DNA from: Salipiger profundus
Lineage (GTDB): Bacteria; Pseudomonadota; Alphaproteobacteria; Rhodobacterales; Rhodobacteraceae
Assembly (NCBI RefSeq): GCF_001969385.1
Contig: NZ_CP014796.1
Location: 186,001 to 250,000 of the forward strand
Direction: 5' to 3'
DNA length: 64,000 nucleotides
Numbering within the stretch: the first letter of the stretch is position 1; each line of letters opens with the position of its first letter. This document shows positions 4,089-57,348 of the stretch, in pieces. Both the position numbers and the translations under genes were made by a program. A model generated the notes under the pieces. That model saw nothing but the letters and a program-made list of their open reading frames with translations. It was not told the origin of the DNA and did no database searches.

Positions 4089-4802
4089 TCACACCCGGCG
4101 GAACGTCAGGTAATGCGGCACCCGGCCCTCACGCAGCGCCTTCTGCTCGTAGCGGGTCGACAGCCAGTCGTCCCAGGGTTCGCGCCAGTCCTCAGGCCGC
4201 TCGGCCAGCCACTCGAAGCCCGCCTTGGGCACCTCGACCAGCGTCTGCCGCACGTAGTCCGGAATGTCGGTGGCCACGCGGAAGATCGCGCCCGGCGTCA
4301 TCGCCCGGGCCAGCGGCTCGAGGTGCTCCTGCGTCACGAACCGCCGGCGGTGATGCTTCTTCTTCGGCCAGGGGTCCGGGTAGAGCAGGAAGGCCCGCTC
4401 GATGCAGCCGTCCGGCAGCACGTCGAAGAGGTTGCGCACGTCGCCCGGGTAGACCCGCACGTTGCCGACGCCGGCGCGGCGGATCTTGCCCAGCAACATC
4501 GCGACGCCGTTGATGTAGGGCTCGCAGCCGACGATCCCGACCTGCGGGTTCTGCGCCGCCTGGTGGACCATGTGCTCGCCGCCGCCGAAGCCCACCTCGA
4601 GCCACAGCGGCTTGCCGTCGAAGAGCCGCCCCGTGTCGAGCGGCACCCGGTCCGGGTTCACGTCCCAGTCCACCGGTCCCGGCGACAGCGCGCCGAGATC
4701 TTCCTCGAGATAGGCCTCCTGCGACGCCTTGAGGGTCTTGCCCTTCACGCGGCCGTAGAAATTGCGCCAGGGGGCGCCGGGATGCTTGTTCGACGTGGTC
4801 AT
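4089..4802 (-). CDS. trmB: tRNA (guanine-N7-)-methyltransferase
   Basis: TrmB (237 residues) makes m7G46 in the variable loop of many tRNAs using S-adenosylmethionine. Motifs: the SAM-binding EVGFGGGEH, the acidic CEPYINGV after strand 2, and the signature YPDPWPKKKHHRRRF that holds catalytic and tRNA-contacting residues, ending STRYEQKALREGRVPHYL near the C-terminus. The ATG at 4802 gives the normal family length; the reading frame extends much further upstream only as the antisense shadow of metK coding sequence. It lies 98 bp after metK, the supplier of its methyl donor, but a strong terminator separates them, so it probably has its own promoter. Confidence 0.95.
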   Translation of the reverse strand: MTTSNKHPGAPWRNFYGRVKGKTLKASQEAYLEEDLGALSPGPVDWDVNPDRVPLDTGRLFDGKPLWLEVGFGGGEHMVHQAAQNPQVGIVGCEPYINGVAMLLGKIRRAGVGNVRVYPGDVRNLFDVLPDGCIERAFLLYPDPWPKKKHHRRRFVTQEHLEPLARAMTPGAIFRVATDIPDYVRQTLVEVPKAGFEWLAERPEDWREPWDDWLSTRYEQKALREGRVPHYLTFRRV

Positions 4803-4847
4803 GGCCGCGCGTTTAGCGCCAAGCCCCGCGCAGGGCAATCCCGCACG

Positions 4848-4874
4848 AAAAAGGGCGGCCCGCGACGGCCGCCC
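4848..4874 (-). terminator. Intrinsic terminator of metK
   Basis: Perfect 8-bp stem GGGCGGCC / GGCCGCCC with a six-base loop. On the minus strand it is followed directly by TTTTT (the A-run at 4848-4852 on the plus strand). It lies 27 bp past the metK stop codon. Confidence 0.85.
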
Positions 4875-4900
4875 CTGTTGTCCTTCGACGCCTTTGCGCT

Positions 4901-6079
4901 TCAGATCTCTTTCTTCAGCGCCTCGGCAAGGTCGGTCTGCTCCCACGAGAAACCGCCGTCCTCGTCGGGCGCACGCCCGAAGTGGCCGTAGGCCGCGGTG
5001 CGCTCGTAGATCGGCTTGTTGAGGTCGAGATGAGTGCGGATGCCGCGCGGCGTCAGGTCCATGACCTTGGGGATCGCCGCCTCGATGGCCGCCGGGTCGA
5101 CCTCGGCGGTGCCGAAGCTGTCGACGTAGATCGACAGCGGCTTCGCCACGCCGATGGCATAGGACAGCTGCACGGTGCAGCGCTCGGCCAGCCCCGCCGC
5201 GACGATGTTCTTGGCGAGGTAGCGCGAGGCATAGGCCGCCGAGCGGTCCACCTTGGTCGGGTCCTTGCCCGAGAAGGCGCCGCCGCCGTGCGGCGCCGCG
5301 CCGCCGTAGGTGTCGACGATGATCTTGCGCCCCGTAAGGCCGGCGTCGCCGTCGGGCCCGCCGATCACGAAGGTGCCGGTGGGGTTCACCCACCAGTCGG
5401 TCGCGTCGGTGAGCCAGCCCTCGGGCAGGACCTCGCGGATGTAGGGCTCGACGATCGCGCGCACGTCGGCCGAGCTGAGATCCGGGTCGAGGTGCTGGTG
5501 CGACAGCACGACCGAGGTCACGCCCACCGGCTTGCCGTTCTCGTAGCGGACCGAGAACTGCGACTTCGCGTCCGGCCCCAGCATCGGCGCCTCGCCCGAC
5601 TTGCGCGCCTCGGCGAGCCGCTTGAGCACCGCGTGCGAGAACAGGATCGGCGCCGGCATCATCTCCGGCGTCTCGTTGGTGGCGTAGCCGAACATGATGC
5701 CCTGGTCGCCGGCGCCCTCGTCGCCGCGCTCGCCGGTCACGCCTTGCGCGATATGCGCCGACTGCTCGTGCAGCAGGTTGGTGATCTCGACCGTTTCCCA
5801 GTGAAACTTGTCCTGCTCGTAGCCGATGTCCCGGATGCACGCGCGCGCGATGTCCGGGATCGCCTGCATGTACTCGGAGAGCTTGGCCTGATCGGACAGG
5901 CCGATCTCGCCCCCGATGACCACGCGGTTGGTGGTGGCGAAGGTTTCGCAGGCGACGCGCGCCAGCGGGTCTTCCGCGAGCAGCGCATCGAGCACCGCAT
6001 CGGAAATACGGTCACAGACCTTGTCAGGGTGACCCTCGGACACGGACTCCGAGGTGAAAGTGTAGTTTTGTCGGGACAT
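4901..6079 (-). CDS. metK: S-adenosylmethionine synthase
   Basis: Methionine adenosyltransferase (392 residues) makes SAM from methionine and ATP. It starts [20 protein letters not shown], with the HPDK motif that binds ATP/Mg. The loop [12 protein letters not shown] and the P-loop-like [20 protein letters not shown] are present. Length and domain layout are typical. Expression is very likely controlled by the SAM/SAH riboswitch just upstream (6081-6130), whose pseudoknot includes the GGAG ribosome binding site six bases before the ATG. A TTGACG-type promoter overlapping the lnt stop codon could start this transcript, and a strong terminator closes the unit. Confidence 0.97.
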
Positions 6080-6080
6080 T

Positions 6081-6130
6081 TGCGCTCCATTGGGTACCGA
6101 CCGTCACGCCAGGAAGCCGTTGTGACGGGG
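6081..6130 (-). ncRNA. SAM/SAH riboswitch in the metK leader
   Basis: On the minus strand the metK leader reads CGTCAC, then AACGGCTTCCTGGC, then GTGACG, a linker, and AATGGAGCGCAA just before the ATG. CGTCAC (6127-6122) and GTGACG (6107-6102) form stem P1. The loop segment GCTTC can pair with GGAGC (6089-6085), which contains the Shine-Dalgarno sequence, giving the H-type pseudoknot known for this class. The core CACAACGGCTTCCTGGCGTG matches the SAM/SAH riboswitch as I remember it from Rhodobacterales metK leaders. The layout implies that SAM (or SAH) binding hides the ribosome binding site and lowers metK translation. Confidence 0.92.
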
Positions 6131-6143
6131 ATGTAACGCACTA

Positions 6144-6172
6144 TGGCTACGGCGTGCCGACAGGGGCGTCAA
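6144..6172 (-). promoter_or_regulatory. Candidate sigma-70 promoter for metK
   Basis: Minus-strand TTGACG (6172-6167) overlaps the lnt stop codon. Seventeen bases further is TAGCCA (6149-6144), a poor -10 box. Transcription from here would start near 6137, only a few bases before the riboswitch, which fits its function. The -10 match is weak. Confidence 0.4.
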
Positions 6173-7701
6173 TCGGAAACGCGCCGGACGCGCCAGAAAG
6201 CCGCGAGGGCGAGCACAAGAAACAGGCCGAGCGCCGGCAGGTCGCCGGTGCGGCTGTAGGGGGTCACCCGCAGCGGCGGCGGCAGCGCGGTGTCGAGATA
6301 GCCGGCCTCGCCCAGCGGCAGACGGTCGAGCACGCGCCCGGCCCCGTCGATCACCGCCGAGACGCCGGTGTTGGCGGCGCGCACCATCGGCAGCCCCTGC
6401 TCGATGGCCCGCACCCGCGCCTGCGCGAGATGCTGGTAGGGCCCCGAGAACGTGCCGAACCATGCGTCGTTGGTGAGCTGCAGCAGGAAATCGGGGCGCT
6501 GCGGCGACCGCAGGTCCTGCGGAAAGACCGCCTCGTAGCAGATGAGCGGCAGCGCCCGTCCCAGTTCCTCGCCCAGGTCGATGGTGCGCGGCCCCGGGCC
6601 CGCGGCGTAGCCGCCCGCCGCCCGCTGCGCGAGCCCGCCGATCTCGAAATGGCTGAAGAACCACGCGGCGGGCATGTATTCCCCGAAGGGCACGAGATGG
6701 TGCTTGTCGTAGACCTGCAGCACCTCGGGCCCCTGCTCCGCCAGAACCAGCGAATTGTAGTAGTCACCGGCCTCTTCGCGCTGGATGCCGACCACGAGCC
6801 GCCCCGGGAAGGCCGCGTCGGTGGCGATCTCGAGCCCGCGGTCGGCGCGGTTCAGCAGCATCGGCAGCGCGGTCTCCGGCCAGACGGTCAGCGCCGGGCG
6901 CGCGAGGTCTTGGTGAGACGGGGCGGCAGTGAATTCGACCTGCCGGTCGAAGAAGGTCGGCACCCAGGCCGGGTCCCACTTCTGGCGCTGCGGGGCGTTG
7001 GGCTGCACCAGCCGCACCACCGGCCGGCCGTCGAGATCCTGCAGCGGCGGCACCAGCGCCATCCCGCCAAAGACCAGAACGGCCAGCAGCGCGCCCCCGG
7101 CAAGCGCCGGGCGCCACGCCTTCGCGGCGCCCCCGCGCAGGGCAACGGCGAGCAGCGCCGCCGCCCCGAGGGTGACGAAGGTCAGCCCGTGCGGACCGAT
7201 GACCGCGACCCACTGGATCGCGTCGACGGGCGTCCAGAGCGAGCCGACCATGGCCCAGGGAAAGCCGGTGAAGAGATAGGCGCGGGCCAGCTCGGCCGTG
7301 GCCCAGAGCACGACCAGCGCGAAGAGCCGGCGCCGCCGCCGCACCTGCGCCGCGCCCCAGAAGGCGAGCGCCCAGAACAGCGCCAGCCCCGCCGCGAGGA
7401 AGAACAGCGCGAAGGGGGCCATCCAGCCCGTCGTGACCGCGTCGACCTGGAACGGCTCGACCACCCAGGACAGCACCAGCCCGAAGTAGCCCAGCCCGAC
7501 GCCCCAGCCCGCCGCCAGCGCGCCGCGGGTGCCCCGCGCCGCGTCGAACAGCAGGAAGGCCGCGACGAGGCCGGCGAAGGCCGGCCACGGCAGATCGAAG
7601 GGCGCCTGCCCGAAGCCCATGACCGCGCCAGCCGCGACGGCCAGCGTCAGCCTTGCCCAGCCCGGCAGCCCGTCGAGCCGCCGGCGCGCGACGTCAAGCA
7701 C
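6169..7701 (-). CDS. lnt: Apolipoprotein N-acyltransferase
   Basis: Lnt (510 residues) adds the third acyl chain to the N-terminal cysteine of lipoproteins in the inner membrane. About six to seven hydrophobic helices fill the first half, followed by the periplasmic nitrilase-like domain. The catalytic triad can be read as Glu in VWPETALP, Lys in YDKHHLVPFGEY and Cys in ICYEAVFP. A last C-terminal membrane segment (LGLFLVLALAAF) anchors the domain. The start is GTG at 7701, inside the 3' end of the CBS/CorC gene (8-bp overlap), so coupling is likely. The window encodes many lipoproteins that would be its substrates. Confidence 0.95.
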   Translation of the reverse strand: MLDVARRRLDGLPGWARLTLAVAAGAVMGFGQAPFDLPWPAFAGLVAAFLLFDAARGTRGALAAGWGVGLGYFGLVLSWVVEPFQVDAVTTGWMAPFALFFLAAGLALFWALAFWGAAQVRRRRRLFALVVLWATAELARAYLFTGFPWAMVGSLWTPVDAIQWVAVIGPHGLTFVTLGAAALLAVALRGGAAKAWRPALAGGALLAVLVFGGMALVPPLQDLDGRPVVRLVQPNAPQRQKWDPAWVPTFFDRQVEFTAAPSHQDLARPALTVWPETALPMLLNRADRGLEIATDAAFPGRLVVGIQREEAGDYYNSLVLAEQGPEVLQVYDKHHLVPFGEYMPAAWFFSHFEIGGLAQRAAGGYAAGPGPRTIDLGEELGRALPLICYEAVFPQDLRSPQRPDFLLQLTNDAWFGTFSGPYQHLAQARVRAIEQGLPMVRAANTGVSAVIDGAGRVLDRLPLGEAGYLDTALPPPLRVTPYSRTGDLPALGLFLVLALAAFWRVRRVSD

Positions 7702-8653
7702 GCGGCGCCTCCGTCTCGGAGCGTTGGGCCTGCGGCACGGCCGCCGGCTTCGGCTCGGGGGCGGGCAGCGCCGCGACCGTGGTGTGCGGACGGATGCGCA
7801 ACCGCTTGATGCGGCGGGGATCGGCGTCGACGACCTCGAAGTCGATGCCCGCCGGATGCGGGATCACCTCGCCCCGGGCGGGGACGTGCCCCGCCAGCAT
7901 GAACACGAGGCCACCGAGCGTGTCGATCTCTTCCTCGTCAATGTCCTCGTCGGCAGTGAGCGCGATGCCGGTGTCGGCCTCGAACTCCTCGAGCGGCGTC
8001 TTCGCGAGCGCCAGCCAGCTGCCGGTCTTCTCGCGGAAGAAGTTGCGGCCCTCGTCGATGTCGTGCTCGTCCTCGATCTCGCCGATGACCTGTTCGATCA
8101 GGTCCTCGATGGTCACGAGCCCGTCGACACCGCCGTATTCGTCGATCACCAGCGCCATGTGCCGGCGTTCGGTCTGCATCTTGGTGAGCAGCACGCCGAT
8201 GGGCATGGAGGGCGGGACGAAGACCAGCGGGCGCAGGATCTTGGTGAGGTCGAAATCCTCGTCGCCGTTGCCGTTGAAGCCGTGGCGCAGCGAGAAATCC
8301 TTGAGGTGCGCCATGCCGATCGGCGTGTCGAGCGTGCCGGAGTAGACCGGCAAGCGGGTCATGCCGCTTTCGCGGAAAACCTTCACAAGCTCGGATTTCG
8401 TGCTGGTGTCAGGCACCGCCACGATGTCCGCCTTGGGAATCGCCACGTCCTCGACGCGCATGCGGCGCAGGTTCATGAGCCCCGGAGGAGGGGTCATGGC
8501 CTGAGGCACGGGGGTATTGTCCACCGGGGCGACCTGATCCGGCGCCGGTTTGAACGCTCTGAAAAGACGGCGGAAAAATCCGTCGCCGCCTTGTTCGTAT
8601 GCTCCTGGCCGCGCGCTGTGCGCCGCCATAGACGAGCCGTCGGTGTCGCCCAT
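7694..8653 (-). CDS. CBS-domain/CorC-HlyC protein (YbeX family)
   Basis: A 319-residue member of the CorC/YbeX/TlyC group. A poorly conserved, proline-rich N-terminus leads into two CBS domains (RRMRVEDVAIPKADIVAVP onward, and ILRPLVFVPPSMPIGVLLTK with the conserved ALVIDEYGGVDGLVT), followed by a C-terminal transporter-associated domain (DTLGGLVFMLAGHVPARGEV). There are no membrane helices, so it is the cytosolic type linked to Mg/Co handling and, in E. coli, to ribosome biogenesis. I chose the ATG at 8653 (MGDTDGSS) because AAAAGGAT lies just before it; an ATG 11 codons upstream lacks a ribosome binding site. It sits between ybeY and lnt, as in most proteobacteria. Confidence 0.9.
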   Translation of the reverse strand: MGDTDGSSMAAHSARPGAYEQGGDGFFRRLFRAFKPAPDQVAPVDNTPVPQAMTPPPGLMNLRRMRVEDVAIPKADIVAVPDTSTKSELVKVFRESGMTRLPVYSGTLDTPIGMAHLKDFSLRHGFNGNGDEDFDLTKILRPLVFVPPSMPIGVLLTKMQTERRHMALVIDEYGGVDGLVTIEDLIEQVIGEIEDEHDIDEGRNFFREKTGSWLALAKTPLEEFEADTGIALTADEDIDEEEIDTLGGLVFMLAGHVPARGEVIPHPAGIDFEVVDADPRRIKRLRIRPHTTVAALPAPEPKPAAVPQAQRSETEAPRA

Positions 8654-57158: not shown

Positions 57159-57233
57159 GCGGGCGTAGCTCAGGGGTAGAGCATAACCTTGCCAAGGTTA
57201 GGGTCGGGCGTTCGAATCGCCTCGCCCGCTCCA
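57159..57233 (+). tRNA. tRNA-Gly(GCC), copy 1
   Basis: 75 nt including an encoded CCA. Acceptor stem GCGGGCG/CGCCCGC, D-loop with AGCTCAGGGGTAGAGC, anticodon GCC at 57191-57193, T-arm GGGCGTTCGAATCGCCT, discriminator T. It differs from copy 2 by changes that keep base pairing in the anticodon and T stems. Confidence 0.97.
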
Positions 57234-57273: not shown

Positions 57274-57348
57274 GCGGGCGTAGCTCAGGGGTAGAGCATT
57301 ACCTTGCCAAGGTAAGGGTCGTGAGTTCGAATCTCATCGCCCGCTCCA
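57274..57348 (+). tRNA. tRNA-Gly(GCC), copy 2
   Basis: 75 nt including CCA. Same acceptor stem, D-arm and anticodon loop (GCC at 57306-57308) as copy 1, but the T-arm is GTGAGTTCGAATCTCAT and the anticodon stem TACCTT/AGGTA. It lies 40 bp after copy 1 and forms the left border of a region without core genes, as expected for a tRNA integration site. Confidence 0.97.

What the first reader, a model, noticed from the sequence alone, without database searches (positions are those of the whole stretch)
6081..6130. Complete SAM/SAH riboswitch sequestering the metK ribosome binding site
The core (P1 CGTCAC/GTGACG, loop AACGGCTTCCTGGC, pseudoknot partner GGAGC that contains the Shine-Dalgarno) agrees with the metK-leader riboswitch known from Rhodobacterales. 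The 11-base linker before the AATGGAGC segment looks longer than in the examples I remember. A promoter that crosses the lnt stop codon would start the transcript only a few bases before the aptamer, so nearly the whole leader is aptamer plus ribosome binding site. The wider cluster includes several SAM-using enzymes (trmB, miaB).
Basis: partly seen in the sequence, partly recalled or inferred. Interest (0 to 1): 0.75.

Follow-up and report, generated by a model that had tools for sequence, protein, structure and literature searches.

The report
Ordinary SAM/SAH riboswitch before metK
The stretch in front of the gene for the SAM-making enzyme matches a known RNA switch that senses SAM or its by-product and covers the ribosome landing site; it is a normal member of a known family, with a conserved and unusually built promoter-like sequence just upstream.

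Summary
On the minus strand, 6131-6083 is a full-length Rfam SAM-SAH (RF01727) match: 55.3 bits, cut-off 40. Its GGAGC ends 4 nt before metK. 250 of 295 genomes of the family exceed the cut-off, as do 20 of 20 of the genus, the window's own included. In 132 one-per-genus aptamers P1 pairs in 888 of 924 cells against 766±5 when shuffled. The pseudoknot pairs in 132 of 132, once through a compensatory G-C to A-U change. The linker is NOT long: its length is the mode of 133. The proposed promoter is supported: TTGAC in 118 of 132 leaders, TA exactly 17 nt later in 113 of these. In the window TTGACG spans the lnt stop codon, implying a start near 6137, 9 nt before P1. T at -7 occurs in 0 of 114. 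Side find: four species have a metK leader with the same pseudoknot and U23 but a rebuilt P1 junction, with no Rfam match in the three scanned. The window element itself is ordinary.

The parts
6167..6172 (-). predicted -35 element TTGACG; contains the lnt stop codon TGA (6171-6169)
   Evidence: coordinates; TTGAC 38-58 nt before A13 in 118 of 132 genera (Markov control mean 7.3, max 15) and in 20 of 20 of the genus; stop of the long upstream ORF = TGA inside TTGAC in 38 of 90 genera and 13 of 20 of the genus
6144..6149 (-). predicted -10 element TAGCCA, 17 nt after the -35, no T at -7
   Evidence: not listed by the simple sigma-70 scan
6129..6137 (-). predicted transcript 5' end (start about 6137, +/-2) and the 9 nt before P1
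   Evidence: inferred from the -10 position; no transcript data seen
6122..6128 (-). P1 5' strand CCGTCAC
   Evidence: covariation
6108..6121 (-). loop and ligand pocket AACGGCTTCCTGGC (A13 to C26 of the crystal numbering); GCUUCC makes the pseudoknot, U23 would pair the ligand adenine
   Evidence: numbering from PMC7367207
6101..6107 (-). P1 3' strand GTGACGG
6089..6100 (-). linker TCGGTACCCAAT, of the commonest length
6084..6088 (-). GGAGC: Shine-Dalgarno sequence and pseudoknot partner of the loop
4901..6079 (-). metK, S-adenosylmethionine synthase, the controlled gene
   Evidence: TIGR01034 497.7 bits, cut-off 309.4
6169..7701 (-). lnt, apolipoprotein N-acyltransferase, upstream gene whose end holds the -35
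   Evidence: TIGR00546 287.4 bits, cut-off 132.9

Best explanation
A canonical SAM/SAH riboswitch (RF01727) that represses translation of metK. RNA starts near 6137 from a sigma-70-type promoter that begins inside the end of lnt, so almost the whole 58-nt leader is aptamer plus ribosome binding site. When SAM or SAH is plentiful it binds at U23, between P1 and the pseudoknot, and stabilises pairing of GCUUCC with GGAGC; the Shine-Dalgarno sequence is covered and MetK synthesis falls. When ligand is low the pseudoknot is unstable and ribosomes load. Shown here: presence, family membership, conservation, P1 covariation, conservation of the promoter-like sequence. Inferred from published work on relatives: ligand binding and translational repression. 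Inferred only: the start site, and that the -10 without -7T makes transcription depend on CarD.
For: RF01727 55.3 bits over 40, positions 1-49 of 49. 250 of 295 family genomes over the cut-off and 20 of 20 of the genus, own genome included. P1: 888 of 924 cells paired, shuffles 766±5, maximum 784; slid versions 252-578. Pseudoknot five of five pairs in 132 of 132, with a compensatory G17-C50 to A17-U50 in L055. U23 and G24 in 132 of 132. The ligand site and OFF-state model are from PMC7367207 sections 13, 14 and 20. No terminator-like site in the leader: the one listed in 4800-7800 (6238-6226) is inside lnt, against a shuffle mean of 1.3. Promoter.
Against: The nested fold of the leader is no more stable than shuffles (z -0.44), and the minimum-energy structure puts the linker in a hairpin with metK codons. 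Without the pseudoknot GGAGC is predicted only 37% unpaired on average in 132 genera, though 70% in the window, second most open of the 132; this weakens a simple 'free when unbound' picture for relatives. The aptamers were collected by a covariance search that rewards P1, and I located GGAG[CT] and the core by pattern, so pairing and invariance are partly selected for. P1 is imperfect in some relatives: all seven pairs in 105 of 132, the outermost in 113. Pseudoknot covariation rests on one genome. Position 44 is A here, U in the crystallised RNA. No binding, expression or start-site data for this genome.
Confidence: 0.95

Rival explanations
1. The element is a true family member but metK is mostly translated from RNA read through from lnt, so the short-leader promoter is minor and the switch acts inside a longer message.
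For: lnt lies directly upstream on the same strand; the simple promoter scan lists no site.
Against: TA stands exactly 17 nt after TTGACN in 113 of 118 TTGAC-bearing leaders, and TTGAC-17-TA also lies upstream of metK in 9 of 31 located leaders of genomes without an RF01727 match (no chance control was made for that count).
Confidence: 0.15
2. TTGAC and TA are kept for coding or other reasons (the end of lnt), not as a promoter.
For: TTGAC contains the stop codon of the long upstream ORF in 38 of 90 genera.
Against: In other genera the stop lies elsewhere while TTGAC stays: 14 upstream of the -35, 20 between -35 and -10, 2 downstream (13 of the 90 have no TTGAC, 3 no long ORF). The 17-nt spacing holds in 113 of 118.
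Confidence: 0.05
3. The window copy is a decayed switch that no longer binds ligand.
For: Its score (55.3) is below the best relative (64.7).
Against: Loop, pseudoknot and P1 are intact; 20 of 20 of the genus keep the element.
Confidence: 0.02

Closest known systems
SAM/SAH riboswitch, RF01727 (Weinberg et al. 2010, PMC2864571, passages seen; structure PMC7367207, sections seen)
   Same: P1, loop, U23, pseudoknot with GGAGC, placed directly before metK; linker of the usual length
   Different: nothing essential; the linker in this genus carries GGTA followed by two pyrimidines (read by eye), position 44 is A as in most relatives
SAM-II (SAM_alpha, RF00521)
   Same: also senses SAM and also present in this genome
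   Different: one match elsewhere in the genome, about 60 nt before an ORF that looks like a sulfhydrylase by its translation (name by my reading); no SAM-II match at metK
Alphaproteobacterial sigma-70 promoters without -7T (PMC8407463, abstract and passages)
   Same: -35 and -10 hexamers with non-T at -7
   Different: here T at -7 occurs in 0 of 114 genera, while the paper reports that over 60% of such promoters lack it

Membership tests
SAM/SAH riboswitch RF01727 | covariance-model score above the gathering cut-off | tested here: met
   55.3 bits vs 40, full length
SAM/SAH riboswitch RF01727 | P1 hairpin conserved by pairing | tested here: met
   888 of 924 cells paired in 132 genera; pairs 2-7 each occur in several standard types
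SAM/SAH riboswitch RF01727 | H-type pseudoknot of loop with GGAGC holding the Shine-Dalgarno | tested here: met
   five of five pairs in 132 of 132, one compensatory change; the partner was located by the pattern GGAG[CT], which was found in 133 of 133
SAM/SAH riboswitch RF01727 | ligand-pocket letters U23, G24, G46 | tested here: met
   present in the window; U23 and G24 in 132 of 132; roles from PMC7367207. Position 44, whose 2'-OH touches the ligand, is A here and U in the crystal; AAYGGAGC is found in 103 of 132
SAM/SAH riboswitch RF01727 | directly upstream of metK, in Rhodobacterales | tested here: met
   4 nt between GGAGC and ATG; metK TIGR01034.
SAM/SAH riboswitch RF01727 | binds SAM and SAH with similar affinity | not testable with these tools
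   needs ITC or in-line probing
CarD-type promoter without -7T | -35 and -10 at usual spacing with A/C/G at -7 | tested here: met
   TTGACG-17-TAGCCA; T at -7 in 0 of 114 genera
CarD-type promoter without -7T | transcription stimulated by CarD | not testable with these tools
   needs in vitro transcription; presence of a carD gene in this genome was not tested

The most novel reading that the evidence does not exclude
The window element is canonical, but the comparison set suggests that the SAM/SAH class is wider than Rfam's model. In Rubricella, Pontibrevibacter (now Pontivivens), Monaibacterium and one unnamed relative, the metK leader keeps G16-G24 (with U23) and the GGAGC pseudoknot, while the junction below the ligand (A13, A14, R25, C26, G27) is rewritten to G, G, C, U, U over a different P1. 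[quoted passage not shown]
Probability: 0.5. Interest if true: 0.5.

Novelty: new member of a known kind. Interest (0 to 1): 0.25.

Why it matters
The window copy is routine annotation: SAM feedback on SAM synthetase. Two by-products are testable. The metK promoter-like sequence has T at -7 in 0 of 114 genera, which, if CarD activates it, would tie SAM synthesis to CarD-dependent transcription with ligand control layered on translation. And the rebuilt junction in four species is a natural experiment on why this small SAM aptamer does not tell SAM from SAH.

Tried and rejected
Long linker: rejected. A genus-specific helix between the conserved 5' end and the linker's GGTA: tried by eye, no consistent pairing, dropped. 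Hairpin of the linker with metK codons in the minimum-energy fold: not better than shuffles, not pursued. Transcription termination as the mechanism: no terminator-like site in the leader. Spread beyond the family: 5 of 385 class-wide genomes, all in the same family, the window's own among them. A second weak match in G145 (22.8 bits): not followed. A paper search for SAM-SAH leaders in Rhodobacteraceae returned 0 papers. For the variant: a loose pattern scan of genome contigs gave 41 loci, 3 with a MetK motif within 240 nt; the other 38 I treat as chance. A two-mismatch search of 394 family genomes matched 92, with the exact core listed only in G015 and G211; of the 30 loci returned by that call one was flagged by my MetK motif test, but its translation is not MetK by my reading.

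Rows dropped: L136 as a duplicate of L101, and L061 (second copy in G047), from the one-per-genus set; L042 (contig end) from the P1 and promoter counts, leaving 132 of 133. The set covers 133 of the 255 matching genomes: the 30 best loci, 29 low-scoring genomes, and in-between ones that I picked.

Of the 40 genomes without a match, 35 gave a match to the MetK protein (18 of 20, 17 of 20; G160, G207 and G216 partial or weak). 31 start regions were located, 5 loci were not; L175's is misplaced (seen). In those 31: a core-like loop plus GGAG in 3 (L063, L180, L181), an ahcY-like end directly upstream in 4 (L064, L069, L072, L078). G693, a fourth genome of G211's genus, gave only an unrelated match; its metK leader was not seen.

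Full report
WHAT IS THERE. On the minus strand, cmscan of the whole window against Rfam 15 gives RF01727 (SAM-SAH) at 6131-6083, 55.3 bits, cut-off 40, positions 1-49 of 49. No other family matches in 5900-6300 up to E 1. In order: CCGTCAC (6128-6122), AACGGCTTCCTGGC (6121-6108), GTGACGG (6107-6101), linker TCGGTACCCAAT (6100-6089), GGAGC (6088-6084), GCAA, then ATG of metK at 6079. The downstream gene is metK (TIGR01034, 497.7 bits) and the upstream gene lnt (TIGR00546, 287.4 bits); the gene after metK looks like trmB but scores just below the curated cut-off (103 vs 112.65).

RELATIVES. 255 of 295 genomes of the family have a match, 250 over the cut-off; 20 of 20 in the genus, own genome included; in a class-wide sample 5 of 385, all of the same family. 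This agrees with the literature: found exclusively in Rhodobacterales, immediately before metK (PMC2864571, passages), and in 13 of 15 studied Rhodobacterales genomes (PMC4239095, passages).

COVARIATION. I oriented 133 one-per-genus aptamers, from high-, middle- and low-scoring matches. In 132 with both P1 strands, 888 of 924 P1 cells pair; dealing the 3' strands out among genomes gives 766±5, maximum 784. Sliding the 3' strand by 1-3 gives 252-578. Pair 1 is always C-G; pairs 2 to 7 each occur in several standard types. All seven pairs form in 105 of 132, the inner five in 120. The pseudoknot pairs fully in 132 of 132. It hardly varies, but L055 changes G17 to A and C50 to U together, restoring the pair; L050 and L153 change only U20, the base that is extruded in the crystal structure (PMC7367207 section 13). 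Cautions: the set was collected by a model that rewards P1, and I located the core and GGAG[CT] by pattern.

LINKER. The distance from P1 to GGAGC is 18 in the window. Among 133 genera: 16 in 2, 17 in 17, 18 in 56, 19 in 36, 20 in 12, 21 in 8, 22 in 1, 23 in 1. The linker is of ordinary length. Reading the leaders of the genus by eye, the linker carries GGTA followed by two pyrimidines; I attach no function to this.

PROMOTER. The simple scan of 4800-7800 lists none; its rule demands T at the end of the -10. Comparison tells more. TTGAC lies 38-58 nt before A13 in 118 of 132 leaders (Markov control mean 7.3, maximum 15). TA follows TTGACN after exactly 17 nt in 113 of the 118, after 18 in 3, and within the spacings tried in none of the other 2. 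The implied start lies 3-7 nt before P1 in 92 of 116. In the window TTGACG is 6172-6167 and TAGCCA 6149-6144, so the start is near 6137, 9 nt before P1. The stop of the long upstream ORF (lnt in the window; not identified in the relatives) is the TGA inside TTGAC in 38 of 90 genera with long flanks and in 13 of 20 of the genus; in 36 of the 90 it lies elsewhere while TTGAC stays. The base at -7 is T in 0 of 114 genera (A 28, C 56, G 30), where a background T of 16.5% would give a chance of about 1e-9 if genera were independent, which they are not; in the genus 0 of 20. PMC8407463 (abstract and passages) reports that over 60% of alphaproteobacterial sigma-70 promoters lack -7T and proposes CarD as the activator. 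CarD action at metK is my inference.

MECHANISM. The published model (PMC7367207 sections 13, 14, 20) has ligand at U23 between P1 and the pseudoknot, and the Shine-Dalgarno sequence covered when ligand is bound. U23, G24, U45 and G46 are present here. Position 44 is A where the crystallised RNA has U; its contact with the ligand is through the 2'-OH, but a second contact of U44, to G24, uses the base. AAYGGAGC, as in the window, is found in 103 of 132. PMC10516623 (abstract and passages) adds that folding as the RNA is made first exposes the Shine-Dalgarno sequence. Against a simple picture: nested folding gives no unusual stability (z -0.44), and predicts GGAGC only 37% unpaired on average across genera without the pseudoknot (70% in the window).

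GENOMES WITHOUT A MATCH. Of the 40, 35 gave a match to the MetK protein, three of them partial or weak. In 31 located start regions (one, L175, misplaced) 3 leaders keep a core-like loop with GGAG, 4 follow an ahcY-like end, and 9 have TTGAC-17-TA (no chance control). Two of the 3, from different genera and found without assuming the variant, share one variant core. A pattern scan of named genomes then found it before metK in Rubricella aquisinus, Pontibrevibacter nitratireducens and Monaibacterium marinum (3 of 41 matching loci; the first and last have the same leader as the two genomes already seen), and a genus search added one unnamed species. Rfam gives no RF01727 match to the first three, nor to L181, up to E 10; the fourth was not scanned. 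The core TGCGGCGGCTTCCTGCTTC is identical in the four, but the later two were found by searching for it. The flanking stems differ and pair in each (5, 8, 7 and 5 bp; sum 25 against 9.2±2.6 for shuffled flanks, reached in 1 of 5000); yet 2 of 12 cross-pairings between species reach 5 and 7 bp, so with four sequences the covariation is suggestive, not final. G16 to G24, including U23, and GGAGC are kept; A13, A14, R25, C26 and G27 are changed (my alignment by eye). In Rubricella the gene upstream looks like malate dehydrogenase rather than lnt (by my reading of its end). A paper search naming these genera with the riboswitch listed no title that looked like a report of such a variant (listing only, 15 of 46 shown).

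VERDICT. The finding is real and correctly read, except for the linker. It is an ordinary member of a known riboswitch class.

Noticed in passing
L203 (3476-3521), L208, L218, L236; same leaders in L063, L180, L234, L235: Variant SAM/SAH-like metK leader in four species, with identical core TGCGGCGGCTTCCTGCTTC, different pairing stems and GGAGC; RF01727 does not match it in the three scanned.
   Followed up: partly
L181 (genome G227): Single metK leader with ACAACGGCTTCCAG, i.e. U23 changed to A, and GGAGC; no RF01727 match up to E 10. Decayed or different switch.
   Followed up: no
L061 (genome G047, contig 16): Second SAM/SAH element (39.7 bits) before a metK-like start whose ATG reads ATT; may be a duplicated metK beginning to decay. 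Compare L032, the main copy.
   Followed up: no
L055 (genome G133): Compensatory change in the pseudoknot: loop G17 to A with GGAGC to GGAGT.
   Followed up: yes
window 6144-6172 and relatives: metK promoter-like sequence TTGAC-17-TA with T at -7 in 0 of 114 genera; also present upstream of metK in 9 of 31 leaders of genomes without an RF01727 match.
   Followed up: partly
L103 (own genome, contig 1, 2840448-2840525): A SAM-II riboswitch (61.8 bits) before an ORF that looks like a sulfhydrylase: the genome uses two SAM switch classes.
   Followed up: partly
window 57159-57230 and 57274-57345: Two similar tRNA genes in tandem on the + strand (Rfam tRNA, 65.4 and 69.8 bits).
   Followed up: no
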